Source: Opitutia bacterium Tous-C4FEB (GTDB taxonomy: Bacteria; Verrucomicrobiota; Verrucomicrobiia; Opitutales; Opitutaceae). Taken from it: DNA of 64,000 nucleotides. The stretch lies in contig NEVA01000009.1 of NCBI GenBank assembly GCA_002304445.1, positions 62,001-126,000 on the forward strand. The letters run 5' to 3'. The notes under the pieces are model-generated. The model had not been told where the DNA came from. It saw nothing but the letters and a program-made list of their open reading frames with translations, and ran no database searches. How positions within the stretch are numbered: the first letter of the stretch is position 1; each line of letters opens with the position of its first letter. The position numbers and the translations under genes were made by a program. This document shows, piece by piece, positions 10,754 through 56,799 of this stretch.

Positions 10754-10961
10754 TCCGCTCCCCTGCCCTTCAAGCCTATTTCCGCCACCTTATCACCCTG
10801 GCACTCGTTGCGCTTGGACTAGTCCTCAGAGCGAACCGGCTCCGTAGAAAACTCAAGGGGCGTCGGCCAAACACTTACCGCGCCACGCCCAAGCCGCTGT
10901 TCCTCGCTCGGAAAAACATCTTAGAGGAAAGCGCCCCTGATTCGTCCGTGGTTCGGATCGG

Positions 10962-44559: not shown

Positions 44560-47500
44560 TCAGAACGAGGACCGGAGGCCCAACGAATACTGCGGACCAT
44601 AGTCCTCATGATTGGTGAGCGTGGACCAAGCCGGCACCCCGGGACCGGAAACTTCCCACTGGGTGGGTTCGTTGGTGAGATTGCGGCCGGCGAAGAAGAC
44701 GGCGAAGCGCTTGGTGACCTGATACTCCACGTTGCCATCGAGTTGATTGCGCGCCCGGATATACTCGTTGGCGCCGGGAAATTGGTTAGCGGTATCGCGC
44801 AGCATTTTTCCGCGCCAATTCAACAGCAAGTTTCCGGAAACCTTGGAGAAGCTGAACCTCAAGCCGAGATTTCGACCACGGGGAATGTAGCGCTTCCAGT
44901 CCGACGCCGTGATCCGGGAACCGGTGAGTTGCAGGTGGGTGAGGTTCACCATGAACGTAAAGTGCTTTGCGACGTTGTTAGCAAAGGATAGCGGCTCCCA
45001 CTGGGTGAAGGTCGTCAACGGCAAATCAGCCCGGGCTTCCCAGCCATCGATCCGGGCGTCGCTGAGATTGATGCGTTGCGTGTATTGATAGCCCAACGCG
45101 TCGCTGGAAACCCCCAGTTGATCGAGCAAAGCTTGGTCGGCGATCCGGTTGACCGAGCTGAAGAAATCGCGGATGTCTTTTTTGAAATAGTTGAACATCA
45201 GGAGGCCGTTCTTCGGGAGGTAATACTCGATCGAGTAATCATAATTCTTCGCCGTCCAGGGCCGCAGGCCGAGATTGGCTCCGGTTATAAATCCCGGAAT
45301 CGTCGCCGAGGTATTACCCGGAACGCCGAAGTTCAGGTTCTCGCCGACGAAAAGGTTCGGAACGATGTCGGACAGATTGGGCCGGCCGATTGTCTCCGCG
45401 TAGGCCGCCCTAATCAGAAGGTCCTTTGTGAGGTTAAACGTGCCGTGCACGCTCGGGTGATAGTAATCGTAGTCCCGCGAATTGTAGTAGCCCCGCCGTT
45501 TGTAGAGCACTTCGTTGTAGGCTCCGGAGCCGTTCGGCAAAAGCTCGGGGCGAATCTGGGACTGCACGCCGGCGGTCGCGGGATTCGTGTCGAGCACGTT
45601 ACCATTGGCGTCCTTCACCAAAACAGCATCGGCATCCTGCCTAAAACCCAAGCCCTCGGTGAACGTCTGTTCGTAGCGCACGCCACCCACAAGCCTCAGT
45701 CGGTTCTTCAGCAGGCTGAGATCGCCCATAATGTAGGCGGCGCTGATCTTCTCCCGCAGCCAAGGCGACCGGATCGCGACATTGCGCGGAACGTCGCCCG
45801 CTTGGCCGGATGTCTGAGTCCACGAACGGGGTGTACTCACGAAATTCTTCCATACCTTGAACGAGTCAGGCCACTCCGGCGCGACAATGCCGAAACCAGG
45901 GCTGAGCCCGCGATCAGACTCGGATACAAAATTCGCCATACCCTCATCGCCGCTGCTCGCAACGCCATCGGCGCCGACGTAGGTGTAGTTGACCGGGGTG
46001 TAACTGAGATCGCGGGTCATGTCGTTGACGCTGCCACCGGTCTTCAGCGACATCGGCTGTCCGAAAACGCTGAATTTGCGGATCACATTTAACCGGGCTT
46101 CCATAACTTCGTCGGTCGCGTTGAGGCGCTCAATGCCGGCCGTGGTCAGGTTGTAATTGGCGAGCTTGAGCTCGTCGATCCGCTGGCCCGCCGCGTTGAG
46201 CACGGTAACCTTCGAGATCGAAGGCTGATCCTGGTTGATCCCCTCGAGATTGACCGTGCGGACATTGGGCAAATTCACGCTCACGGTGCGGAAGAAGCCC
46301 TTGTCGCCGTCGCGCGTACGGTTGTTGGAGTTCGAAAAACTGCCCGCCGCTTCGACTTCCCAATTTCCCCGGTTAAAATTCCAAGACCCCGAGACGGAAC
46401 GGCTCAAAGCGTGACGTTCCTGGAAGCTGTTGCCCCGTCCGACCGACCCAGCGGTTGTGAGTGACCCGAAGACGTTGCTTCGCTCCCAGCGGACCGGCTG
46501 ACCGCCGCCGACGTTGTAGTTGATGCCGCGCGAGGCCGTCTGCTGCTTCGAGCCCGCCCCCGAAAGTTTCAACTTAAACGTGCTGGTATCCCACGCCTTG
46601 AAATCAAACGCCACGCCGCCCGATGTGCGGTCGCTGCGATTGGGCGCAAAATTGGTATTAAAGTTGGTCGTGTAGGGATTGGCCAACGTCGCACCGGCGC
46701 TGGTGAAACGGGCGCCTAGCACGGCGCGGTTCTGCAGGTAATACTGGCTGGAATGCGCCGCCGTGACCACGTAACCAAACCGCTTGTTAACCGGGTGCAC
46801 GAACTGAAGATCGAATGAGGGCAGGATCTTGCTCGTGTCTTCGGCGAGCGGTCCCGGCGTCTTGCCGATGTCCATAGCCTTTTCGTTGGCCGAAAGATAA
46901 ACCGACAAACGCGTCTCCATCTTCGCGCGTTCGAAGGCGCTGCGGCTAACGAAATTCACCGCACCACCGAGGAGGTTTGCGGACATATCGGGCGTGGGCA
47001 GCTTCACCACTTCGATGCGCGCGAGATTGTTGATATTGGCGCCATCCAGCACGAACTGCCGTGAGGAAGTCTGCGTATTGGCGATAATGGTGCTGGCGAG
47101 CATACCTCCATCGAGCGTGACGTTGGTGTAATTGGGATCAAAACCGCGCACCATGATACCCGACGGCGTGTTACCGTCCTTCACATCCAATGAAATACCC
47201 GGCAGGAATTTCACAAACTCGCCCACATTGCCCTGATTGATTTCACCGAAGGCATCCGTGGAGACCACGTCCTTTCGGTTAGCCGAGAAACGTTGCTCGT
47301 TGATGGCGATAGCGGCCGCGTCGTATTCGCGTTCCGAGGCCACCACAAATTTTTCCAACACCATCGTGCCGTCAGGTCGAACGACGGCCGCACTGCGCCG
47401 CAGCGCGATATCCTGCTGCACTGTGCCACCGGGACTAATCGAAACCTTAACGCTGTAAGGCGCCATCCCCGTAAAGAAAACGTCCAGCACGGCATCACCG

Positions 47501-47790
47501 GCGGGGACGCCGGCCAACCGGTATTCGCCGGCGGCGTTGGTCTGGGCGCTGGTTTGCGTGCCCCGCACCGTGACTTGGGCTTTGTTCAAATAGTTTCCGC
47601 TTTGTTCGTTCTGCACGCGACCGGCAACCGCGCCGGTAGCCACCGGTTGGGCTGCCAGGGATGCACCGAGCAGGCCCACGGAAACGAGAACCACGCCAAA
47701 GCAGGCTTGGAGAAATTTTCCGGCCAAGCCCGACGCAACGAGCGCGACGGCACCGAACTGCATCCGACGAAATGACGCTATGGGATTCAT
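44560..47790 (-). CDS. TonB-dependent receptor (pectin operon 1)
   Basis: A 1076-residue receptor from the ATG at 47790. An N-terminal hydrophobic export signal (ACFGVVLVSVGLLGASLAAQ) is followed by a carboxypeptidase-regulatory-like domain (GAVAGRVQNEQSGNYLNKAQ), a plug with FSANRKDVVSTDAFGEINQG, GIMVRGFDPNYTNVTLDGG and LLGGAVNFVSRSAFE, and a barrel ending LGLRSSF with the usual terminal Phe. It imports oligosaccharides released by the adjacent lyases and hydrolases. It is the first gene of the operon and lies opposite the LacI-family gene, with three candidate operators in the spacer, so carbohydrate-dependent induction is likely. No SusD homologue accompanies it. Confidence 0.94.
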   Translation of the reverse strand: MNPIASFRRMQFGAVALVASGLAGKFLQACFGVVLVSVGLLGASLAAQPVATGAVAGRVQNEQSGNYLNKAQVTVRGTQTSAQTNAAGEYRLAGVPAGDAVLDVFFTGMAPYSVKVSISPGGTVQQDIALRRSAAVVRPDGTMVLEKFVVASEREYDAAAIAINEQRFSANRKDVVSTDAFGEINQGNVGEFVKFLPGISLDVKDGNTPSGIMVRGFDPNYTNVTLDGGMLASTIIANTQTSSRQFVLDGANINNLARIEVVKLPTPDMSANLLGGAVNFVSRSAFERAKMETRLSVYLSANEKAMDIGKTPGPLAEDTSKILPSFDLQFVHPVNKRFGYVVTAAHSSQYYLQNRAVLGARFTSAGATLANPYTTNFNTNFAPNRSDRTSGGVAFDFKAWDTSTFKLKLSGAGSKQQTASRGINYNVGGGQPVRWERSNVFGSLTTAGSVGRGNSFQERHALSRSVSGSWNFNRGNWEVEAAGSFSNSNNRTRDGDKGFFRTVSVNLPNVRTVNLEGINQDQPSISKVTVLNAAGQRIDELKLANYNLTTAGIERLNATDEVMEARLNVIRKFSVFGQPMSLKTGGSVNDMTRDLSYTPVNYTYVGADGVASSGDEGMANFVSESDRGLSPGFGIVAPEWPDSFKVWKNFVSTPRSWTQTSGQAGDVPRNVAIRSPWLREKISAAYIMGDLSLLKNRLRLVGGVRYEQTFTEGLGFRQDADAVLVKDANGNVLDTNPATAGVQSQIRPELLPNGSGAYNEVLYKRRGYYNSRDYDYYHPSVHGTFNLTKDLLIRAAYAETIGRPNLSDIVPNLFVGENLNFGVPGNTSATIPGFITGANLGLRPWTAKNYDYSIEYYLPKNGLLMFNYFKKDIRDFFSSVNRIADQALLDQLGVSSDALGYQYTQRINLSDARIDGWEARADLPLTTFTQWEPLSFANNVAKHFTFMVNLTHLQLTGSRITASDWKRYIPRGRNLGLRFSFSKVSGNLLLNWRGKMLRDTANQFPGANEYIRARNQLDGNVEYQVTKRFAVFFAGRNLTNEPTQWEVSGPGVPAWSTLTNHEDYGPQYSLGLRSSF

Positions 47791-47837: not shown

Positions 47838-47853
47838 TATTTCATATGAAATA
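47838..47853. promoter_or_regulatory. Operator candidate 1 (TATTTCATATGAAATA)
   Basis: A perfect 16-bp palindrome 48 bp upstream of the TonB receptor ATG. It shares the TTTCA...TGAAA core with two more palindromes in this spacer and lies beside a LacI-family gene, the usual arrangement for a local repressor. Confidence 0.7.
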
Positions 47854-47871
47854 ATAATTGCACTACGATTG

Positions 47872-47883
47872 GTTTCATGAAAC
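47872..47883. promoter_or_regulatory. Operator candidate 2 (GTTTCATGAAAC)
   Basis: A perfect 12-bp palindrome with the same half-site TTTCA, 82 bp from the receptor start. Its centre is two bases shorter than in candidate 1 (no AT insert). Confidence 0.6.
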
Positions 47884-47990
47884 AGAATTGAGTCAAGGTT
47901 GTTTTGGGCCGACCAAACAGCACGTTTTCAGTACTATTAATTTGATAAATATCTTCAATTCGACGGAGCCCCAGGATTCAACAGCCTCAC

Positions 47991-48005
47991 TATTTCACTG
48001 AAATA
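47991..48005. promoter_or_regulatory. Operator candidate 3 (TATTTCACTGAAATA)
   Basis: A 15-bp palindrome with a single central base, 37 bp upstream of the LacI-family ATG. The position suggests autoregulation of the regulator gene and the operon behind it. Confidence 0.65.
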
Positions 48006-48042: not shown

Positions 48043-49143
48043 ATGCCTCCCTCCTCTCCGCGAGCGACGATCACCGATGTTGCCAAAGCCGCCGGCGTCG
48101 CACTCGGAACCGTCTCCCGCGTCTTCAACCATCATCCCGACGTTAACACCGAGATTCGCGACCATGTGATGAAAACGGCGCGTAAACTCGGTTACAGCCG
48201 GATTCGCCGCCGCACCCCATCCGTTCCGGTCACCGCACCAAGCATCGGGGCGGTGGGCGTGGTGATTTTTGGCATGGATGATACTTTGGTGCAGTTGCCG
48301 ATTGTCAGCTCCGCGCTTCAAGGCATCGAACAAGCGCTCTCCGCCGGGGGGAGAAATTTGATGCTCGCAACGATCGCAAGCGGTAACCGCCTCCCGCCGT
48401 TCCTCGAGTCCGATCAGGTAAAAGGCGTCATCATCAAAGGCCCCAACCAAGGCGTGCTGCCGCCGGAGAGCGAAAACGACTTGCTCCGCCAACTCTACCG
48501 CCTCCCACGGGTTTGGCTGATGGGACGCCTGCCCAACGCCCGCGGCGATCACTGCAACTTCGACACGGAAGCGGCCGGCCGGATCGCCGCTGACCATCTC
48601 TTGGCCAAAGGCCATCGCCGCGTCGCGTTCATGAATCCCAAGCCCGGTCAAATCCAGTTCGAGAAGGTAAAGACGTCCTTCCAAATGGCCTGCTCACGCG
48701 GAGGCCTGAAGTGCACCCTCTTGGAAGTGGAAGCTGGGCCGCCTCTCGCTTGGCCTTTGCCGTCGACCACCCGTCAGGAAAATGTCGATCAACTTATCGA
48801 CGAATGGAACGCGTTGCCCGTTGCTACCCGACCGACCGCCCTGTTTGTGCCCTCCGATCGCACCGCCACCCAGCTTTACGCCGCCCTCGCCCAACGCCGG
48901 CTCCGCCCCGGCCGCGACGTGAGCGTCATCTCGTGCAACAACGAGAAGTCCCTTCTGGTTAATCTCCATCCCGCCCTGACGACCATCGACGTGCACGCCG
49001 AGTTGATCGGCCGTCGGGCCGTCGACCTGCTGCTGTGGCGCATGGCGCATCCAGCCGAGGTCATCGACTCGCAGGTTCTCATCGAGCCGGCCTTGATCGC
49101 CGGTGATTCGGTGGCCCAACTTCCATATCCCGCGGGTCGGTAG
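48043..49143 (+). CDS. LacI-family transcriptional regulator
   Basis: A 366-residue regulator. Residues ~8-55 form the LacI helix-turn-helix and hinge: ATITDVAKAAGVALGTVSRV, HHPDVNTEIRDHVMKTARKL. The rest is a periplasmic-binding-protein-like effector domain (GAVGVVIFGMDDTLVQLP, NFDTEAAGRIAADHLLAKGH, RRVAFMNPKPGQ, VISCNNE, LTTIDVHAELIGRRAVDLLL), with sugar or acid-sugar ligands in known members. It is divergent from the pectin receptor operon and sits 77 bp before a symporter gene, so it probably controls both directions through the TTTCA-TGAAA sites (inference). Confidence 0.93.
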   Translation: MPPSSPRATITDVAKAAGVALGTVSRVFNHHPDVNTEIRDHVMKTARKLGYSRIRRRTPSVPVTAPSIGAVGVVIFGMDDTLVQLPIVSSALQGIEQALSAGGRNLMLATIASGNRLPPFLESDQVKGVIIKGPNQGVLPPESENDLLRQLYRLPRVWLMGRLPNARGDHCNFDTEAAGRIAADHLLAKGHRRVAFMNPKPGQIQFEKVKTSFQMACSRGGLKCTLLEVEAGPPLAWPLPSTTRQENVDQLIDEWNALPVATRPTALFVPSDRTATQLYAALAQRRLRPGRDVSVISCNNEKSLLVNLHPALTTIDVHAELIGRRAVDLLLWRMAHPAEVIDSQVLIEPALIAGDSVAQLPYPAGR

Positions 49144-49220
49144 CACAGCAAAAAGCCCACCTGAGCGCATCCCGAGATGACCACTCCGTCCCCAAGACTG
49201 TTGGCGAGCCGCCGTTGCCG

Positions 49221-50765
49221 ATGAATCTGCAAACTGCCGACTACGTCGTCATTGCGCTCTACGGTCTGGTTATCTTGGGCATCACTTTGGTATTCGCCCG
49301 CCGACAGAAGACGTCCGCCGATTACTTCATCGCCAGCCGCTCCATGCCGGCGTGGGCCGTGGCCATGGCTATGATGGCCGCGCTCATCAGCAGTAACACC
49401 CTCGTCGGTCACCCGGCCACCGCTTATCAGAAGGGCCTGATTCTCCTGCTGGGCAGTCTCACACTGCCGCTCGTCCTGATCTTTGTCGCGAAGGTCATCG
49501 TTCCTTTTTACCGCAACGCCGTCGGCATGAGCGCGTATGAATACCTCGGCGCCCGTTTCGGCATCGGCGGCCGGCTCTACGCTTCCGGCTGCTTCGTAGC
49601 CGACCGGCTTTTTGATGTCGGGGTGACGATGCTCACCACCGCCGTCCCGATTTGCGTGATGACCGGCTGGGACATGTCCCGCGTAATTCTAGGCATGGCG
49701 ATCTTCACCGTCGCTTACACCGTCGTCGGCGGCATGACGACGGTCGTGTGGACGAGCGTCGTGCAGGGTTTCATTTTCGTCGCGGCGGCCGTCATCATCG
49801 CCGCTCGGCTGATCTTCGCGCCCGAGTGCGGCCCGCCCGGTGCCGTCGTCGTCGCCGCCTGGGATGCGGGCAAATTCTCCCTCGGTAACTTCGATTTTTC
49901 TTGGCGCGCGCTCGTCGATCCCGGCGTGAGCTCGCAGTGGCTCCTACTGCTCGCTTATACGACCAACTGGGCACGTCGCTACATCGCCGACCAACACATG
50001 GTCCAACGCTACCTCATCGCCAAAACAGATCGCGACGCAAGTCGGGGCGTCCTTTGGAACGGTCTCCTTTGCGTGCCGGTTTGGGGTATCTTCATGGTCA
50101 TCGGCGTCTGCCTCTACGGCTACTATCTAACAAGCGGCGCGACTCCTCCGCCCGTGAGCGATGAGGTCGTGCCCTACTTCATCATGCATCAACTCCCGGC
50201 CGGTATCGTCGGCCTGATGCTCGCGGCGATTCTCGCCGCATCCATGTCCTCGATCAGCCCGGACTTAAACAGCATCGCCACGGCATTCACCGCCGATTTG
50301 GTCGGGCACCTCTTTCCCCGTCAGTCGGACCGCGCCCGCCTGCTCACCGGCCGGCTTGCGGTCGCCGGCGCCGGGGCGTTCGCGATCGTCGTGGCTTTGG
50401 TAATGATGCCGAAGGAAGGCGGCGCCACGATTATGGAACGCGCGGTGACGGTCGCAGCGATTCTCTCCGGCGGCATGCTCGGGCTGTTTTTCCTCGGTTT
50501 CCTCACCCGTCGCGCCACGCGTCAGGGCTGTTATGTCGGAATCGCGGCCTGTGCAGTCTTTACGGCGTGGGGCACCCTGACCGAACCGCAGAATCAGCTG
50601 CTCGACCTCGGTTTCAATTTCCCGCTCAACCCGATTCTCATTGGAGTCACGGGTCACCTCATCGTTTTTGGCGTCGGCTATGCGGCTAGTCGTTTGATCG
50701 GCGGCTATGTGCCGCCCGACGTCGATCAACTCACCTTCCGGCGCAAACCCGTCGCCCAAGTCTGA
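49221..50765 (+). CDS. Sodium:solute symporter (SSS family)
   Basis: A 514-residue, highly hydrophobic protein. The ATG at 49221 is preferred over a TTG two codons earlier. SSS features include the N-terminal helix VVIALYGLVILGITLVFARR, the segment SADYFIASRSMPAWAVAMAM, the family signature region VVGGMTTVVWTSVVQGFIF and AAILAASMSSISPDLNSIAT. It probably takes up a sugar, uronate or carboxylate with Na+. As first structural gene after the LacI-type regulator, it likely feeds the enzymes encoded right behind it; the next gene starts two bases after its stop. Confidence 0.92.
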   Translation: MNLQTADYVVIALYGLVILGITLVFARRQKTSADYFIASRSMPAWAVAMAMMAALISSNTLVGHPATAYQKGLILLLGSLTLPLVLIFVAKVIVPFYRNAVGMSAYEYLGARFGIGGRLYASGCFVADRLFDVGVTMLTTAVPICVMTGWDMSRVILGMAIFTVAYTVVGGMTTVVWTSVVQGFIFVAAAVIIAARLIFAPECGPPGAVVVAAWDAGKFSLGNFDFSWRALVDPGVSSQWLLLLAYTTNWARRYIADQHMVQRYLIAKTDRDASRGVLWNGLLCVPVWGIFMVIGVCLYGYYLTSGATPPPVSDEVVPYFIMHQLPAGIVGLMLAAILAASMSSISPDLNSIATAFTADLVGHLFPRQSDRARLLTGRLAVAGAGAFAIVVALVMMPKEGGATIMERAVTVAAILSGGMLGLFFLGFLTRRATRQGCYVGIAACAVFTAWGTLTEPQNQLLDLGFNFPLNPILIGVTGHLIVFGVGYAASRLIGGYVPPDVDQLTFRRKPVAQV

Positions 50766-50767
50766 CT

Positions 50768-51925
50768 ATGCTTTCCTCTTTTTCGCCGCTCACGCTCCTG
50801 CAACCGGCGCGTATTCACTTTGGCCCCGGTTGTGCCACACCCGCCGTCACTGCGCTCGCGCGCCACGGCCACCGCCGAGTTTTTCTCCTGACCTCCCCCT
50901 CCGTCCGAGCCCACGCCGAGTTTCTTGCCGCCACACTCCGCGCCGAGAACGTCACGGTCGAGATCGCCACCGGAGTCCCGCCCGAGCCCACCACCGCGTG
51001 CTGCGAAATCCTGCGCGCCGCGGCCCGCACCTTCGCCCCCGATCTCATTCTCGCCGTCGGCGGGGGCAGCGTTCTCGACATCGCAAAGCTCCTCGCCGCA
51101 CTCCACGACCGACCCGAACCCGTCGCTTCATTTTACGGCGTCGGCCTGCTCACCGGGCGCCGCACAGCGCTCGCCTGCGTGCCCACCACGGCCGGCACCG
51201 GCAGCGAAGTTTCGCCCAACGCTCTGCTTTTCGACGAAGCCTCCGTCGCCAAAAAGGCCGCGATCAGCCCCGCCCTCGTGCCCGACACCGCGATCATCGA
51301 TCCGCAATTGATGCTCTCGCTTCCGCCCGCGCTGACCGCGACCACCGGCATTGATGCGCTTACCCATTGCCTCGAAGCCTACGCCAACAAAGCCGCGCAT
51401 CCGATCGTGGATCTTTACGCGCTCAACGGCGTCCGGCTCATCGCAGCCCACCTTCCACGCGCGGTGCGCGACGGTCACGATCTTGAAGCCCGCAGCGCGG
51501 TCGCTCTCGGCAGCCTTTACGGCGGGCTTTGTCTCGGCCCGGTCAATACCGCGGCCGTGCATGCGCTCGCCTATCCTCTCGGCGGTGAATTTCATCTGGC
51601 GCACGGTCTCTCCATCGCGCTCATGTTGCCGCACGTCGTGCGCTACAACCTACCCGCCGCACCCGCCCGTTACGCCGACCTCGCCCGCGCCCTCGGGGTC
51701 ACGGGTACTGGCACCGACTCCGCGCTCGCCACCCAAGGCGCCGACCGCCTCGCGGCTCTTTGCGCCGAATGCGGTATCCGCCCCGGTCTCGCCCACCAAG
51801 GCATTCCGGCCGACGCCATTGCCCGCCTCGCCGCCGAGGGCATGAAAGTCACGCGCCTGCTGAAAAACAATCCGCGCGAGCTCACGCTCGCCGACGCCGA
51901 GACCATTTTCCGCCAAGCCTTCTGA
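50768..51925 (+). CDS. Iron-containing alcohol dehydrogenase
   Basis: A 385-residue group III (Fe-dependent) alcohol dehydrogenase. The NAD site is AVGGGSVLDIAKLLA; metal ligands are expected in GIDALTHCLEAY (D and H) and in VHALAYPLGGEFHLAHG (two H), matching the FucO pattern. Such enzymes reduce or oxidise aldehydes, lactaldehyde, 1,3-propanediol or maleylacetate. It lies in a packed operon between the symporter (2-bp gap) and the DapA-like gene (10-bp gap). In context it may oxidise an acid sugar or reduce an aldehyde released by the aldolase-like enzyme (inference). Confidence 0.92.
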   Translation: MLSSFSPLTLLQPARIHFGPGCATPAVTALARHGHRRVFLLTSPSVRAHAEFLAATLRAENVTVEIATGVPPEPTTACCEILRAAARTFAPDLILAVGGGSVLDIAKLLAALHDRPEPVASFYGVGLLTGRRTALACVPTTAGTGSEVSPNALLFDEASVAKKAAISPALVPDTAIIDPQLMLSLPPALTATTGIDALTHCLEAYANKAAHPIVDLYALNGVRLIAAHLPRAVRDGHDLEARSAVALGSLYGGLCLGPVNTAAVHALAYPLGGEFHLAHGLSIALMLPHVVRYNLPAAPARYADLARALGVTGTGTDSALATQGADRLAALCAECGIRPGLAHQGIPADAIARLAAEGMKVTRLLKNNPRELTLADAETIFRQAF

Positions 51926-51935
51926 CCGTCCCAAC

Positions 51936-52841
51936 ATGTCCTCCCTCAAGCGCCACCGCGGCGTCATGGTTCCCATGGCCACGCCCTTCACTTCCACCGG
52001 CCAACTCGACGAAGCGGCCGTCGCCCGCATGGTCGAGCGTCTCGCCGCGCATCGCCTCGGTGTCTTTGTGCTCGGCACGACCGGCGAAGCCCCCTCGATC
52101 CCTTTCGCCGACCGCCAACGGCTCGTCGAGATTGCGGTCAAAGTCGCGGCCGGTCGCGTCCTCGTTTATGGCGGGATCGGCACCGACTGCGTGCCCGACT
52201 CCATCACGATGGCCCGCGATTACCACCGCGCCGGCGCCGATGCCGTGGTCGCATTGCTCCCTTCTTATTTCCAACTCAACGCCGCCGAGATGGAATCCTG
52301 TCTCGCGCACATCGCCCGCAGCGCCCCCGGCGGTTTATTGATCTACAACATGCCGCTCACAACCGGCATGTCGATTCCGCTGGATGCCATCGATCGTCTC
52401 AGCGCGCTGCCCAATGTCGTCGGCCTGAAAGATTCCGAGAACTCCCCCGAACGTCTCGAAGCCGTGGCCCAACGCTTTGCCGGCCGGCCAAATTTCTCCA
52501 TTTTCATGGGCGTCGCCGCCAACGGGGCCCGCGCCTATCGCCGGGGTTTCGACGGCGTGGTGCCCAGCTCGGGCAATATCGCCCCGGCCCCATGGCGAGA
52601 CTTCGACGCCGCCGCCCTCGCCGGTGATTGGGACCAGGTCGAGGCGCTCCAAACCCAGCTCGATACCTTCGGCGCAATCGTCCAAAAGGGCCGCTCTCTC
52701 GCCCAATCTCTCGCCGCGCTCAAAGCTGCCTGCGCCGCCCAAGGCCTCTGCACGCGTGACGTGCTTCCGCCCCTCGTCCCGCTCGACGCCGCCGCTTTCG
52801 CAACCGTGCAGCAGGACTGCGCCGCCCTCGGTCTCGTTTGA
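51936..52841 (+). CDS. DapA-family (DHDPS-like) aldolase/dehydratase
   Basis: A 301-residue class I aldolase-fold protein. The Schiff-base lysine is K165 (VVGLKDSEN) and the catalytic tyrosine Y137 (LLIYNMP); GVFVLGTTGEAPSIP is the substrate loop. The family includes dihydrodipicolinate synthase, N-acetylneuraminate lyase, KDG/KDPG-type aldolases and 5-keto-4-deoxyglucarate dehydratase. The catabolic setting (symporter, alcohol dehydrogenase, acid-sugar kinase, PdxA2) makes a sugar-acid aldolase or dehydratase more likely than lysine biosynthesis. Spacing is 10 bp to the previous gene and 6 bp to the next. Confidence 0.9.
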   Translation: MSSLKRHRGVMVPMATPFTSTGQLDEAAVARMVERLAAHRLGVFVLGTTGEAPSIPFADRQRLVEIAVKVAAGRVLVYGGIGTDCVPDSITMARDYHRAGADAVVALLPSYFQLNAAEMESCLAHIARSAPGGLLIYNMPLTTGMSIPLDAIDRLSALPNVVGLKDSENSPERLEAVAQRFAGRPNFSIFMGVAANGARAYRRGFDGVVPSSGNIAPAPWRDFDAAALAGDWDQVEALQTQLDTFGAIVQKGRSLAQSLAALKAACAAQGLCTRDVLPPLVPLDAAAFATVQQDCAALGLV

Positions 52842-52847
52842 GTTCCC

Positions 52848-53993
52848 ATGCCGCAACCGCCCTTCATCGTCATCGCCGACGACCTGACCGGCGCGGCTGA
52901 ACTGGCGGCCACGGCCCATCACCACGGTCTCAGCGCCACGGTGCTCACGCGGCGGCTCGCACCGACATCTCCGGCCGACGTGTGGGTGTTCGACACCGAC
53001 AGTCGGCTTGATTCGCCCGATGTCGCCGCAGCCAAAATCGCCCGGCTGATACCGACCCTCCGCGCGCTTAATCCGGCACTGATCTACAAGAAAACCGACT
53101 CGGTCTTGCGCGGCCCGGTGCGGGCTGAGCTGGAGGCGCTGGCCAACCCTCTCGGCCTTGCTCGGGCTCTGCTCGTACCGGCGAATCCACGGCTCGATCG
53201 CACCGTGCGAGCAGGTCGGTATTCGGTCAACGGCGTGCCGCTGCATCAAACTGCATTCCGCAAAGACCCGCATCATCCCGCGACCACTGATGACGCATGC
53301 GCGCTCCTCGGGAGCATCGGCACACTCCCCGTGCAAAGTCGCTCCGCCAAACAGCTGCTACCCGCACGTGGCATCGTAATCGGGGACGCTTCCAACGAGG
53401 CCGACCTCGACACGTGGGCGGCATTCTCTCGCGAATCGTCCACGTTGCTCGCGGGCGCCTCGGAGTTTTTCGCCGCACTGCTTCGCCAGCGCGGCTGTAT
53501 TCCCGCCGCCAACCGTCCCGACGCCGCCCGTCCACCGGGGCCCACGCTGATACTTTCTGGCACGACTCATCCCGACGCTGAGGTCTTCCGCCGCACGTGC
53601 TGTCAGGCGGTGGCGCGACCTGCCGAGCACCCGATCGACATCGCCGCATGGGCTGGTGAATTGCGTCTTCGCTTAGTCCAACAGGGCCTCGCCCTCGCTT
53701 ACTTTGACGGCCCGCGCTCGACTGATCCCAGGTTGCCACCGGCGTTGCGCGCTACCTTGGCCGGCGTCGCCACCCAGCTGATCGCCGCCCGCGTCTTCAC
53801 GCACCTTATAGTCGAAGGTGGTTCCACCGCCGCCGCGGTCACCCAGGCCCTCGACTGGAGCGAACTCCGCCTGCACCATGCCTGGTCGTCAGGAGTGGCT
53901 TCCCTCCGTCCAATCTCCGCTCCGCTTTTCACCTTAACCCTCAAACCCGGCAGCTATCCTTGGCCTGCCGCTCTCGCGCCACTTTCCGCATGA
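52848..53993 (+). CDS. Four-carbon acid sugar kinase (DUF1537 family)
   Basis: A 381-residue kinase. The N-terminal block IVIADDLTGAAELAATAHHH and DTDSRLDSPD, YKKTDSVLRGPVRAEL are characteristic of the former DUF1537 family; the C-terminal nucleotide-binding part includes LILSGTTHPDAEVF and FTHLIVEGGSTAAAVTQAL. Known members phosphorylate D-threonate, D-erythronate or 3-oxo-tetronates at C4. The gene overlaps the PdxA-family gene by 4 bp (ATGA), exactly the partner used for threonate or erythronate breakdown. Some members act on other acid sugars, so the substrate is inferred. Confidence 0.88.
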   Translation: MPQPPFIVIADDLTGAAELAATAHHHGLSATVLTRRLAPTSPADVWVFDTDSRLDSPDVAAAKIARLIPTLRALNPALIYKKTDSVLRGPVRAELEALANPLGLARALLVPANPRLDRTVRAGRYSVNGVPLHQTAFRKDPHHPATTDDACALLGSIGTLPVQSRSAKQLLPARGIVIGDASNEADLDTWAAFSRESSTLLAGASEFFAALLRQRGCIPAANRPDAARPPGPTLILSGTTHPDAEVFRRTCCQAVARPAEHPIDIAAWAGELRLRLVQQGLALAYFDGPRSTDPRLPPALRATLAGVATQLIAARVFTHLIVEGGSTAAAVTQALDWSELRLHHAWSSGVASLRPISAPLFTLTLKPGSYPWPAALAPLSA

Positions 53994-54997
53994 ACACCAA
54001 GTCCCTTCCGCTCGTCGCCATTACGATGGGCGACGCCGCCGGCACCGGTCCCGAGATCATCACCAAATCTCTTGCCCTCCCCGAGCTTCGCGCGGTTTGC
54101 CGTCCCGTGGTCATCGGCGACGCCGCTGCCATGACCCGCGCGCTTCGCTTTACCGGTGTGTCGCTAAAAATCCGCGCGCTCAAAGACGTCGCCGAAGCCA
54201 CCTCCGCCCCCGGTGAAATCGACGTTCTCGATCTCGCCAACCTCGACCTCGCCACGCTCAAGCTCGGCCACGTCGACCCGCAGGCCGGCCACGCCGCCTA
54301 CGAATACATCAAGCTCGCCACCGAGCTCGCCCTCGCCGGCCGCGTGAGCGCGGTCGTCACCTCCTCGATTAACAAGGAATCCCTAAACGCCGCCGGCCAC
54401 CACTTCGACGGCCACACCGGCCTGCTCGCGCATCTCTGCGACCGGCCGGACGCGACCATGATGCTCGTCGCCGACAAACTTCGCGTAAGCCACGTCTCCA
54501 CTCACGTCCCGCTTCGCGTCGCCATCGACCGCGTAAAACCCGACCGCATCCTCACCGTCCTCCGGCTCACCCACGACGCCGTGCGACGCCTCGGCATCGA
54601 CCGCCCCCGCCTCGCCGTCGCCGGTCTTAATCCCCATGCCGGTGAAAACGGTCTCTTTGGCGACGAAGAGGAAAAATTCATCACCCCCGCCATCGTGCAA
54701 GCCCGCGCTCTCGGCCTGGATGTTCATGGCCCTTTCGCCGGCGACACGATTTTCTTCCGCACGCTCCAGGGCGAGTTCGACGCCGGCGTCGCCATGTATC
54801 ACGACCAAGGCCACGTCGCCGCCAAGATGCTCGGCATCTGGCGCGGGGTGAACGTCACGCTTGGCCTGCCCATCATTCGCACCTCCGTGGAACACGGCAC
54901 CGATTTCGCTAACGCCGGCACCGGCCGCTCCGATCCTCGCAGCCTCAACGAAGCCCTGAAACTTGCCGCCGCCATGGCCGCCCACCCCAACCGATGA
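53990..54997 (+). CDS. PdxA2-like 4-phospho-tetronate dehydrogenase
   Basis: A 335-residue PdxA-family protein from the ATG at 53990, inside the kinase stop. Motifs: PLVAITMGDAAGTGPEIITK, VTSSINKESLNAAGHHFDGH, HAGENGLFGDEE and GVAMYHDQGHVAAKML, with the zinc-binding histidines and aspartates of PdxA. True PdxA oxidises 4-phosphohydroxy-threonine in vitamin B6 synthesis; PdxA2 oxidises and decarboxylates 4-phospho-D-threonate or -erythronate to dihydroxyacetone phosphate. Coupling to the DUF1537 kinase makes the PdxA2 role likely. The next gene starts in its stop codon region (ATGA). Confidence 0.88.
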   Translation: MNTKSLPLVAITMGDAAGTGPEIITKSLALPELRAVCRPVVIGDAAAMTRALRFTGVSLKIRALKDVAEATSAPGEIDVLDLANLDLATLKLGHVDPQAGHAAYEYIKLATELALAGRVSAVVTSSINKESLNAAGHHFDGHTGLLAHLCDRPDATMMLVADKLRVSHVSTHVPLRVAIDRVKPDRILTVLRLTHDAVRRLGIDRPRLAVAGLNPHAGENGLFGDEEEKFITPAIVQARALGLDVHGPFAGDTIFFRTLQGEFDAGVAMYHDQGHVAAKMLGIWRGVNVTLGLPIIRTSVEHGTDFANAGTGRSDPRSLNEALKLAAAMAAHPNR

Positions 54998-56799
54998 AAA
55001 CTCCCGTCCGCTTCGCCCCTCTCACCCTCGCGCTCGCTGCCGCCACCGTCGCGCTCCACGCCGCACCGCCCGTCGTCTACACCGGCACGACGCATGCCAC
55101 CACCACCGCCGACGGTGGGCTGCGCCCCGTCATCGGGGTCCACAATATCCAAGTGGTCCGCTCCAACCGCACCGCGCCTTATCATCAAGACGGTCTCGTC
55201 CACACCTACCTGCACGCGCCGATGCTCGCCCACTGGCGCGGCCACTTCTATCTCGAATACCTCAGCGGCCCCAAAAACGAGCACGACAACCCCACCGCGA
55301 CGTCACTGACCCGCTCGACCGACGGCCTCACATGGGAAGTTCCCCGCACCGTATTCCCTTCGTTTCCCCTGCCCGACGGCACGCAGACCATCGCCCACCA
55401 ACGCATGGGTTTTTATATCTCCCCCGACGACCGGCTGCTCGTGTTGTCCTTTTTCGGTAAACACCCCTCGCCCAACGACGGCGACGGCATCGGCCGCGCC
55501 GTGCGCGAGGTACGCGCCGACGGCACCTTCGGCCCGATCTATTTTCTTCGCCTCAACGGCAAGTCCGCGTTCCCCGGCTTCAAGCCGCCTTACCCGCTTT
55601 ACACCACTGCGCCCGACCGCGGCTTCGTCGCCGCGTGTGATGCGCTGCTCGCCAACAAACTCATGACCGCCCAGTGGTGGGAGGAAGACCAACTCGATGA
55701 AACGGGGTTTTACCGCGTGCGCGGCAAGGCCCTCTCCTACGTCACCCGCCCCGACGGTTCCGTGCTAGGAATCTGGAAAAACCGCCTCGTGGCCACGACC
55801 ACCGACCGCGGCCAGACGTGGACCCCCACCCAGTTTGCCGGCAACATGCCGAACAACGGTTCGAAATATTGGCTCCAGCGCACGGCCGACGGTCGCTACG
55901 GCCTCGTCCTCAACCCCACCAATCGCAACCGCTACCCGCTCGCCCTCATGACGAGCAACGACAGCGCCACGTTCACCGATCTTTTCTCAGTGCACGGTGA
56001 ACTCCCGGACCAGCGCTTCGGCGGCTACCTCAAAAACATCGGCCCGCAATACGTCCGCGGCATCGTCGAGGGCAACGGCACGCCGCCCGATGCCGCCCAC
56101 GCTTTTTGGCTCACCTACTCCGTCAACAAAGAGGATATCTGGGTCGCCCGCGTGCCCACGCCGGTCGCGGCCAGCGCCGCTGGTCCGGTCAACGACGATT
56201 TCGAGTCCGCGACGCTCGGCACCTTGCCCGCCGGTTGGAACGTTTACAGCCCGCTTTGGGCACCCGTCCGCGTCGCCGCTGCGACCGCCGGCCAACCCAA
56301 TCGCGCCCTCGAATTCCGCGACGAGGACCCCTACGACTACCCGCGCGCGATCCGCGTCTTCCCGGCCACGCACGGCGTGAAAGTGTCCTTCAAAATTTTT
56401 GCCCGCCAAACCAACGCCCGTTTCGAAATCGACCTGCTCGACGCCGCCGGCGCGCGCCCGGTGCGCCTCGCCCTCGGCGAAGACGGCCACCTCTGGGCCT
56501 GCCACGAGGGCCAGTGGATGGACGCCGGTTCTTATCAGAGCAACCAATGGCTCACGTTCGAGCTAGAGATCCCGCGTGATCCCAATGCCGACCGCTGCGC
56601 CGTCCTCATCGACGGAAAATCCCCGTTGCCCCGCCCCGCGTTCTTCACCGATCCCGTGGCGACGGTCGAGCGCCTGTCATTCCGCACCGGCGCGTGGCGC
56701 GACCGCGGCTTCGGCGGCCGCGATCTGCCGGGCGCCGACACCAAAACGCCGCTCGCGAGTTTCCTCGTCGACGACGTAGTCATCACGCCGGTGAACTGA
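54994..56799 (+). CDS. Secreted beta-propeller protein with C-terminal jelly-roll domain
   Basis: A 601-residue protein with a signal peptide (LTLALAAATVALHA). Residues ~25-390 look like a sialidase/glycosidase beta-propeller: YLHAPMLAHWRGHFYLEYLS, SLTRSTDGLTWEVP, WKNRLVATTTDRGQTWTP, KYWLQRTADGRYGLVLNP. Residues ~400-600 form a beta-sandwich like LamG/concanavalin-type domains (VNDDFESATLGTLPAGWNV, SFKIFARQTNARFEIDLLDA). I do not recognise the exact family; exo-acting hydrolases or lyases that release terminal sugars from plant polysaccharides are candidates. Its start overlaps pdxA2, unusual for an exported enzyme in a catabolic operon, and suggests it releases the substrate of the pathway (inference). 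Confidence 0.75.
   Translation: MKTPVRFAPLTLALAAATVALHAAPPVVYTGTTHATTTADGGLRPVIGVHNIQVVRSNRTAPYHQDGLVHTYLHAPMLAHWRGHFYLEYLSGPKNEHDNPTATSLTRSTDGLTWEVPRTVFPSFPLPDGTQTIAHQRMGFYISPDDRLLVLSFFGKHPSPNDGDGIGRAVREVRADGTFGPIYFLRLNGKSAFPGFKPPYPLYTTAPDRGFVAACDALLANKLMTAQWWEEDQLDETGFYRVRGKALSYVTRPDGSVLGIWKNRLVATTTDRGQTWTPTQFAGNMPNNGSKYWLQRTADGRYGLVLNPTNRNRYPLALMTSNDSATFTDLFSVHGELPDQRFGGYLKNIGPQYVRGIVEGNGTPPDAAHAFWLTYSVNKEDIWVARVPTPVAASAAGPVNDDFESATLGTLPAGWNVYSPLWAPVRVAAATAGQPNRALEFRDEDPYDYPRAIRVFPATHGVKVSFKIFARQTNARFEIDLLDAAGARPVRLALGEDGHLWACHEGQWMDAGSYQSNQWLTFELEIPRDPNADRCAVLIDGKSPLPRPAFFTDPVATVERLSFRTGAWRDRGFGGRDLPGADTKTPLASFLVDDVVITPVN

What the first reader, a model, noticed from the sequence alone, without database searches (positions are those of the whole stretch)
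47838..48005. Three matching TTTCA-TGAAA palindromes between a LacI-family gene and the pectin operon
Sites at 47838-47853, 47872-47883 and 47991-48005 share half-sites but differ in centre length (2, 0 and 1 bases). Two lie near the receptor and one near the regulator. This looks like a looping repressor arrangement controlling both the pectin operon and the symporter/tetronate operon. The unequal centres are unusual for one protein.
Basis: partly seen in the sequence, partly recalled or inferred. Interest (0 to 1): 0.6.

Follow-up and report, generated by a model that had tools for sequence, protein, structure and literature searches.

The report
Repressor operators with unequal centres
Three matching DNA palindromes beside a sugar-sensing repressor gene are very probably its binding sites for switching pectin-digestion genes, and comparison with relatives suggests that this repressor tolerates a flexible gap between the two halves of its site, which most of its relatives do not.

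Summary
The three sites are real: TATTTCA-TA-TGAAATA (47838-47853), GTTTCA-TGAAAC (47872-47883), TATTTCA-C-TGAAATA (47991-48005). Genome-wide only 18 places match TTTCA-N0-3-TGAAA, three of them here. Beside 20 orthologous LacI genes the half-site pair occurs 12, 3 and 8 times with 0, 1 and 2 centre bases, against 0.01-0.04 per spacing in shuffles; 14 of 20 loci have one. The motif tracks the LacI gene in the two families that carry it, and two of the three sites are unchanged in a diverged copy of the locus. So they are most likely operators of the adjacent LacI-family protein. The odd point stands: centre length varies within one promoter region. The protein suggests why: its clade lacks the usual hinge motif and has a predicted disordered linker, as reported for E. 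coli CytR. Looping is not supported: the recurring unit is a tandem pair of sites 28-33 bp apart (12 pairs; about 0.17 expected), the third site is half a helical turn out of phase, and no tetramerisation tail is visible. Binding was not measured. A new variant of a known kind.

The parts
47838..47853 (.). operator 1, TATTTCA-TA-TGAAATA, 2-base centre
   Evidence: unchanged in the 82%-identical copy in G010:C83
47872..47883 (.). operator 2, GTTTCA-TGAAAC, 0-base centre; centre 32 bp from operator 1
47991..48005 (.). operator 3, TATTTCA-C-TGAAATA, 1-base centre, ends 37 bp before the regulator's start codon
   Evidence: one mismatch in the 82% copy
47891..47896 (-). TTGACT box 8 bp from the core of operator 2, reading towards the receptor; resembles a -35 box; no clear -10 partner found
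48043..49143 (+). LacI-family regulator, 366 aa: HTH, linker, ligand-binding domain
   Evidence: Pfam PF00356 and PF13377; 13 homologues at 49-62% aligned; fold
48187..48249 (+). codons of residues 49-69: linker without predicted hinge helix, pLDDT under 50 at 56-68
44560..47790 (-). TonB-dependent receptor, first gene of the pectin operon; predicted target
   Evidence: PF00593, PF07715
35651..44491 (-). pectate-lyase-like, MGH1-like GH, DUF6298, BNR and GH127 genes downstream of the receptor; predicted targets
49215..56799 (+). SSF symporter, Fe-ADH, DHDPS-family aldolase, DUF1537 kinase, PdxA, BT_1020-like genes; predicted targets
   Evidence: most of these genes lie beside the regulator in several relatives

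Best explanation
The three palindromes are operators of the adjacent LacI-family regulator. Each half-site is (TTA)TTTCA; a dimer places one helix-turn-helix on each half. Because this clade has lost the hinge helix and has a variable, probably disordered linker between DNA-binding and ligand-binding domains, the two heads are not locked at one spacing and accept centres of 0, 1 or 2 bases. A tandem pair of sites about three helical turns apart covers the receptor promoter region and blocks it until a ligand, probably a pectin-derived acid sugar, binds; the third site gives autoregulation. Shown: the sites, their statistics, conservation, association with the LacI gene, and the absence of the hinge motif in sequence. 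Predicted: disorder of the linker. Inferred: binding, repression, ligand, and that hinge loss causes the tolerance.
For: 20 loci chosen only by the LacI gene (40 regions, 15,277 bases): TTTCA-Nk-TGAAA 12, 3, 8 times for k=0,1,2; at most 2 for any k from 3 to 24; shuffles 0.01-0.04. 14 of 20 loci have a site and 6 of 20 hold more than one centre length. TTATTTCA-N0-2-TGAAA in the two families that hold carriers (gene at 54% identity or more): family f1, 6 of 7 carriers (25 hits, reversed control 0) against 8 of 70 non-carriers (11 hits, control 9), Fisher p 8e-5; family f21, 4 of 4 (30 hits, control 0) against 0 of 13 (control 1) (a fully symmetric site counts once per strand). In f21 the 26 distinct sites are 11 with k=0, 4 with k=1 and 11 with k=2 (read): all three spacings follow the gene. 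82%-identical copy of the gap: 42 mismatches in 245 bp, none in the 28 bp of operators 1 and 2, one in operator 3. 6 bp after a TTGAC box the site is k=0 in L062 and L084 but k=1 in L087, before the first catabolic gene after the regulator in each. Linker: no hinge motif in the 14 aligned sequences, helices end at residue 48, pLDDT under 50 at 56-68. Precedents: CytR (PMC3454398); loss of hinge Ala/Leu goes with loss of the central CG in EbgR-like proteins (PMC2329647).
Against: No binding data. k=2 sites have strongly conserved flanks (T 0.91 and A 0.82 at the two bases outside TTTCA), k=0 sites weaker ones (T 0.54, A 0.42), so the two classes may be read differently or by different proteins. 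Within loci chosen by the gene, the 8 k=2 sites are all upstream of the regulator and 6 or more of the 12 k=0 sites downstream of it, which also fits two classes. One carrier (G025) has no TTATTTCA site; 6 of 20 loci have no exact site beside the regulator (L019, L022, L085, L091 with only 77 bases upstream, L093, L094), though L085 has a 3-base-centre form and the genomes of L019 and L093 have sites elsewhere. One k=0 site (L105) overlaps a start codon. Outside the two carrier families 98 of 278 genomes also have at least one hit of the pattern; some of them have control hits too. The structure control with a canonical hinge showed helix 50-59 but at pLDDT 42.5 overall, so it is weak.
Confidence: 0.68

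Rival explanations
1. Two proteins: the LacI regulator binds only the extended 2-centre palindromes, and the 0-centre sites belong to another regulator or a paralogue with a similar half-site.
For: k=2 and k=0 sites differ in flank conservation and in where they lie relative to the regulator gene; 11 LacI-type matches exist in this genome, 10 over the cut-off.
Against: All three classes share the TTTCA half-site and follow presence of this LacI gene in family f21; tandem pairs combine k=0, 1 and 2 in several ways. Other regulator genes beside the sites were not searched for systematically.
Confidence: 0.17
2. LacI-type looping between the receptor-side and regulator-side sites.
For: Three sites in one intergenic gap, one on the far side.
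Against: Half-turn phasing (120.5 and 152.5 bp), no tetramerisation tail, and the recurring unit in relatives is the pair 28-33 bp apart.
Confidence: 0.08
3. The 0-centre sites are part of a promoter architecture rather than operators as such.
For: 10 of 26 k=0 and 4 of 8 k=1 sites lie 4-9 bp from a TTGACA-like box (at most 1 mismatch), against 3 of 17 k=2 and 3.8% of nearby random positions.
Against: No -10 partner is evident by eye or in the window's scan; 16 of 26 k=0 sites lack the box; a perfect palindrome is not expected of a promoter.
Confidence: 0.07

Closest known systems
E. coli CytR (LacI family)
   Same: Half-sites with variable spacing (PMC3454398, passages); linker called flexible and unstructured in the title of Jorgensen 1998 (seen in reference lists; paper not read).
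   Different: CytR spacing ranges from about zero to three helical turns and works with CRP; here the centres are 0-2 bases in perfect palindromes, no CRP site was looked for, and the half-site differs.
EbgR-like group (LacR, GalR, RafR of Lactobacillus plantarum)
   Same: Lack the hinge Ala/Leu and the central CG of the operator (PMC2329647, passages).
   Different: Described there with a single central base; here 0, 1 and 2 occur within one gap.
CcpA cre-var sites
   Same: A LacI-family protein reported to bind inverted repeats with variable spacers (PMC5263246, passages).
   Different: Core TGTAAA/TTTACA, spacers of 0-40 scanned, and the protein has a normal hinge (recalled).
E. coli LacI
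   Same: Natural operators with a 1-base centre and ideal ones with none (recalled); same fold.
   Different: Hinge helix present; tetramer that loops (recalled).

Membership tests
LacI/GalR transcription factor family | N-terminal LacI-type HTH domain | tested here: met
   PF00356, 49.4 bits against a cut-off of 27
LacI/GalR transcription factor family | Periplasmic-binding-protein-like ligand domain | tested here: met
   PF13377, 103.2 bits; the 50 structural matches shown have Z 25.4-28.4 and most are named as LacI-family proteins
LacI/GalR transcription factor family | Hinge helix with Leu at the operator centre (typical, not defining: Leu in 82%, PMC2978694) | tested here: not met
   Motif absent in the 14 aligned sequences; no helix at 49-69 in the model
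LacI/GalR transcription factor family | Even palindrome with central CG (typical, not defining: 1173 of 1303, PMC4052901) | tested here: not met
   On the presumed operators: centres are 0, 1 or 2 bases; none of the 17 k=2 centres is CG
CytR-like relaxed-spacing regulators | Variable distance between half-sites | tested here: met
   By sequence only; binding not tested
CytR-like relaxed-spacing regulators | Unstructured interdomain linker | tested here: met
   Predicted only: pLDDT under 50 at residues 56-68
CytR-like relaxed-spacing regulators | Anti-activation together with CRP | not tested
   No CRP sites or genes were searched for
KdgR (IclR family) pectin regulator box | TGAAA-N6-TTTCA orientation (recalled) | tested here: not met
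   TGAAA-N6-TTTCA: 0 in 40 regions

The most novel reading that the evidence does not exclude
A clade of Opitutales LacI-family repressors has lost the hinge helix, so that operator spacing became a free variable: one dimer reads the same half-site at centres 0, 1 and 2, and evolution uses the centre length by position (0 or 1 in the promoter, extended 2-centre sites three turns away) to tune strength within a tandem pair.
Probability: 0.3. Interest if true: 0.62.

Novelty: new variant of a known kind. Interest (0 to 1): 0.45.

Why it matters
LacI-family operators are usually predicted on the assumption of one spacing per orthologous group and, mostly, a CG centre that the hinge helix kinks. 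A natural clade without the hinge, with 0-, 1- and 2-base centres in one intergenic gap, would directly test whether the hinge fixes operator spacing, and would warn that fixed-width motif searches miss part of such regulons. It also assigns a regulator to pectin and acid-sugar genes in a group of bacteria for which the two paper searches made here returned nothing (open-licence PMC papers only).

Tried and rejected
Chance: rejected by genome counts, shuffles and conservation. KdgR-type box: wrong orientation. In one search the reverse order TGAAA-Nk-TTTCA also exceeds shuffles at k=13 (3) and k=19-22 (4, 2, 4, 2), and direct repeats at several spacings (up to 3); I read these as neighbouring half-sites of the tandem pairs and loose half-sites, and did not test that. 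Genome-wide regulon in this genome: the 15 other matches overlap ORFs and give no clear further target, so the regulator looks local here; in relatives sites also precede further TonB receptors and a GH106 gene. Promoter assignment: one weak sigma-70-like match (ATGAAA-16-TATTAT, minus strand, 9 of 12; shuffles mean 0.5) overlaps operators 2 and 1; the TTGACT box is the alternative; undecided. Association of centre length with the TTGACA-like box (10 of 26 for k=0, 3 of 17 for k=2) is suggestive only. Nine more distant homologues (40-46%) gave no common palindrome; L104 has TGTTTCACCGTGAAACA. Canonical-hinge structure control L095: helix 50-59 predicted but at low confidence. Papers on the Dha and threonate routes: two searches returned nothing, one only listings on plant pectin and related subjects.

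Selection: searches use 28 loci, 8 of which (L061, L063, L064, L071, L072, L075, L076, L077) were fetched because they hold the motif; one search uses loci picked by the LacI gene only. The 12 tandem pairs come from 10 loci, three of which (L061, L062, L075) are one genome, and in 4 of the 12 one partner has a mismatch; the 0.17 expected uses site density over whole loci, not AT-rich gaps. In the carrier test, genomes outside families f1 and f21 were not entered in the Fisher test; their 98 of 278 with a hit is stated. Near neighbours such as L089 and L092 are not independent. The carrier threshold and the two families were chosen.

Full report
Observation. The three palindromes are present as described in the AT-rich 252-bp gap between a TonB-dependent receptor gene (44560-47790, minus) and a LacI-family gene (48043-49143, plus). 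TTTCA-N0-3-TGAAA occurs at 18 places in the 3.76-Mb genome and 3 are here; the reversed pattern occurs at 4.

Conservation at short range. In G010 (same genus; regulator 96% identical) one copy of the gap has 8 mismatches in 251 bp, none in the sites; a second copy (G010:C83) has 42 mismatches and two gaps over 245 bp, none in the 28 bp of sites 1 and 2 and one mismatch in the 15 bp of site 3. With 17% divergence the chance of none in 28 is about 0.005 (my arithmetic).

Conservation at long range. Orthologues at 50-64% identity were found. In 40 regions (up to 400 bases on each side) beside 20 LacI genes, chosen without regard to motifs, TTTCA-Nk-TGAAA is found 12, 3 and 8 times for k=0,1,2 and at most twice for any other k up to 24; shuffles give 0.01-0.04 each. 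By locus, 14 of 20 have a site, 13 of 20 upstream of the gene; 6 of 20 hold more than one centre length (window with 0, 1 and 2; L018, L021, L096, L083, L084 with 2 upstream and 0 downstream); L019, L022, L085, L091 (77 bases upstream only), L093 and L094 have none. L085 has TTTGTTTCACCGTGAAACAAA, a 3-base-centre form.

Link to the gene. Of 372 genomes of the order, 11 carry the gene at 54% identity or better. The pattern TTATTTCA-N0-2-TGAAA is in 6 of 7 carriers and 8 of 70 non-carriers of family f1, and in 4 of 4 carriers and 0 of 13 non-carriers of family f21. The f21 carriers hold 11 distinct sites with k=0, 4 with k=1 and 11 with k=2 (counted). In the remaining families 98 of 278 genomes have a hit, some with control hits as well.

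Architecture. Among 51 exact sites in 28 loci, 12 pairs have centres 28-33 bp apart (4 of them with one partner at one mismatch), one further pair is 19.5 bp apart, and 8 pairs lie at 40-144 bp; about 0.17 are expected in a 27-34 bp band from site density. The 12 pairs are k=2/k=0, k=2/k=1, k=0/k=1 or k=0/k=0. Window sites 1 and 2 are such a pair (32 bp). k=2 sites are extended (TTATTTCA-NN-TGAAATAA; T 0.79, T 0.91, A 0.82), k=0 sites less so. A TTGACA-like box lies 4-9 bp from 10 of 26 k=0, 4 of 8 k=1 and 3 of 17 k=2 sites, against 3.8% of random positions nearby. 6 bp after such a box, before the first catabolic gene after the regulator, the site is k=0 in L062 and L084 (symporter gene) and k=1 in L087 (Fe-ADH gene).

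Protein. The regulator has the LacI HTH and ligand domain and the family fold, but after the third helix the 14 aligned sequences read Y-x-R-[IL]-R followed by a variable stretch; the usual P-N-x-x-A-R-x-L hinge (recalled) is absent. The model (mean pLDDT 88.4) has helices at 10-17, 21-28 and 36-48, none at 49-69, and pLDDT under 50 at 56-68. By eye, 9 of the 11 LacI-type matches of this genome keep a Pro/Asn...Leu/Met segment there; this gene and that of L123 do not. A canonical-hinge control gave a helix at 50-59 but at low confidence.

Mechanism. Single regulator, relaxed spacing, tandem repression of the receptor promoter region, autoregulation through site 3; ligand probably a pectin-derived acid sugar. 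In relatives a site lies within 330 bp upstream of the symporter in 7 of 10 loci with a symporter of at least 50% identity (L062, L065, L067, L083, L084, L111, L112; not the window, L066, L085), and sites precede further TonB receptors and a GH106 rhamnosidase-family gene.

Comparison with the literature. A survey of 1303 LacI-family regulators reports even palindromes for 1251, a central CG for 1173, and repeat distance usually constant within an orthologous group with rare flexibility (PMC4052901, passages; a word beginning with verrucomicrob does not occur in its main text). CytR has variable half-site spacing (PMC3454398, passages), with the linker explanation in the title of Jorgensen 1998 (reference lists; paper not read). 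EbgR-like members lack both the hinge residues and the central CG (PMC2329647, passages). Two searches for LacI operators with pectin in Verrucomicrobia, or in Opitutus relatives, returned no paper (open-licence PMC papers only).

Verdict. Observation confirmed; operators of the neighbouring regulator likely; looping not supported; unequal centres genuine, with a plausible protein-side cause that needs a binding test.

Noticed in passing
window 49215-56799: Symporter, Fe-ADH, DHDPS-family aldolase, DUF1537 kinase, PdxA and a protein matching residues 28-606 of PDB 5mqr (BT_1020-like) lie together here and, for the most part, beside the regulator in several relatives. It could be a route for the C7 acid sugar Dha of rhamnogalacturonan II via threonate to DHAP (pathway steps recalled, untested).
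   Followed up: partly
L074 (G010:C83) 332-574: A second, 82%-identical copy of the intergenic gap with a 94%-identical fragment of the regulator gene; paralogue or a contig of another strain in this assembly.
   Followed up: partly
L112, upstream of the symporter homologue at 10773 (G025): ATTTCACG-ATAC-CGTGAAAT, a perfect inverted repeat whose TTTCA and TGAAA halves are 8 bases apart, close to a TTGACC box; possibly a wider-spaced relative of the operators.
   Followed up: no
L104 about 16 bp before its LacI-like gene, and L085 about 203 bp before its own: TGTTTCACCGTGAAACA and TTTGTTTCACCGTGAAACAAA, 3-base-centre forms.
   Followed up: no
L123 (G000:C28): Another LacI-type group (YVPTPLHRRRGPKSR) without an evident hinge motif, with near relatives in several genomes of the same genus.
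   Followed up: no
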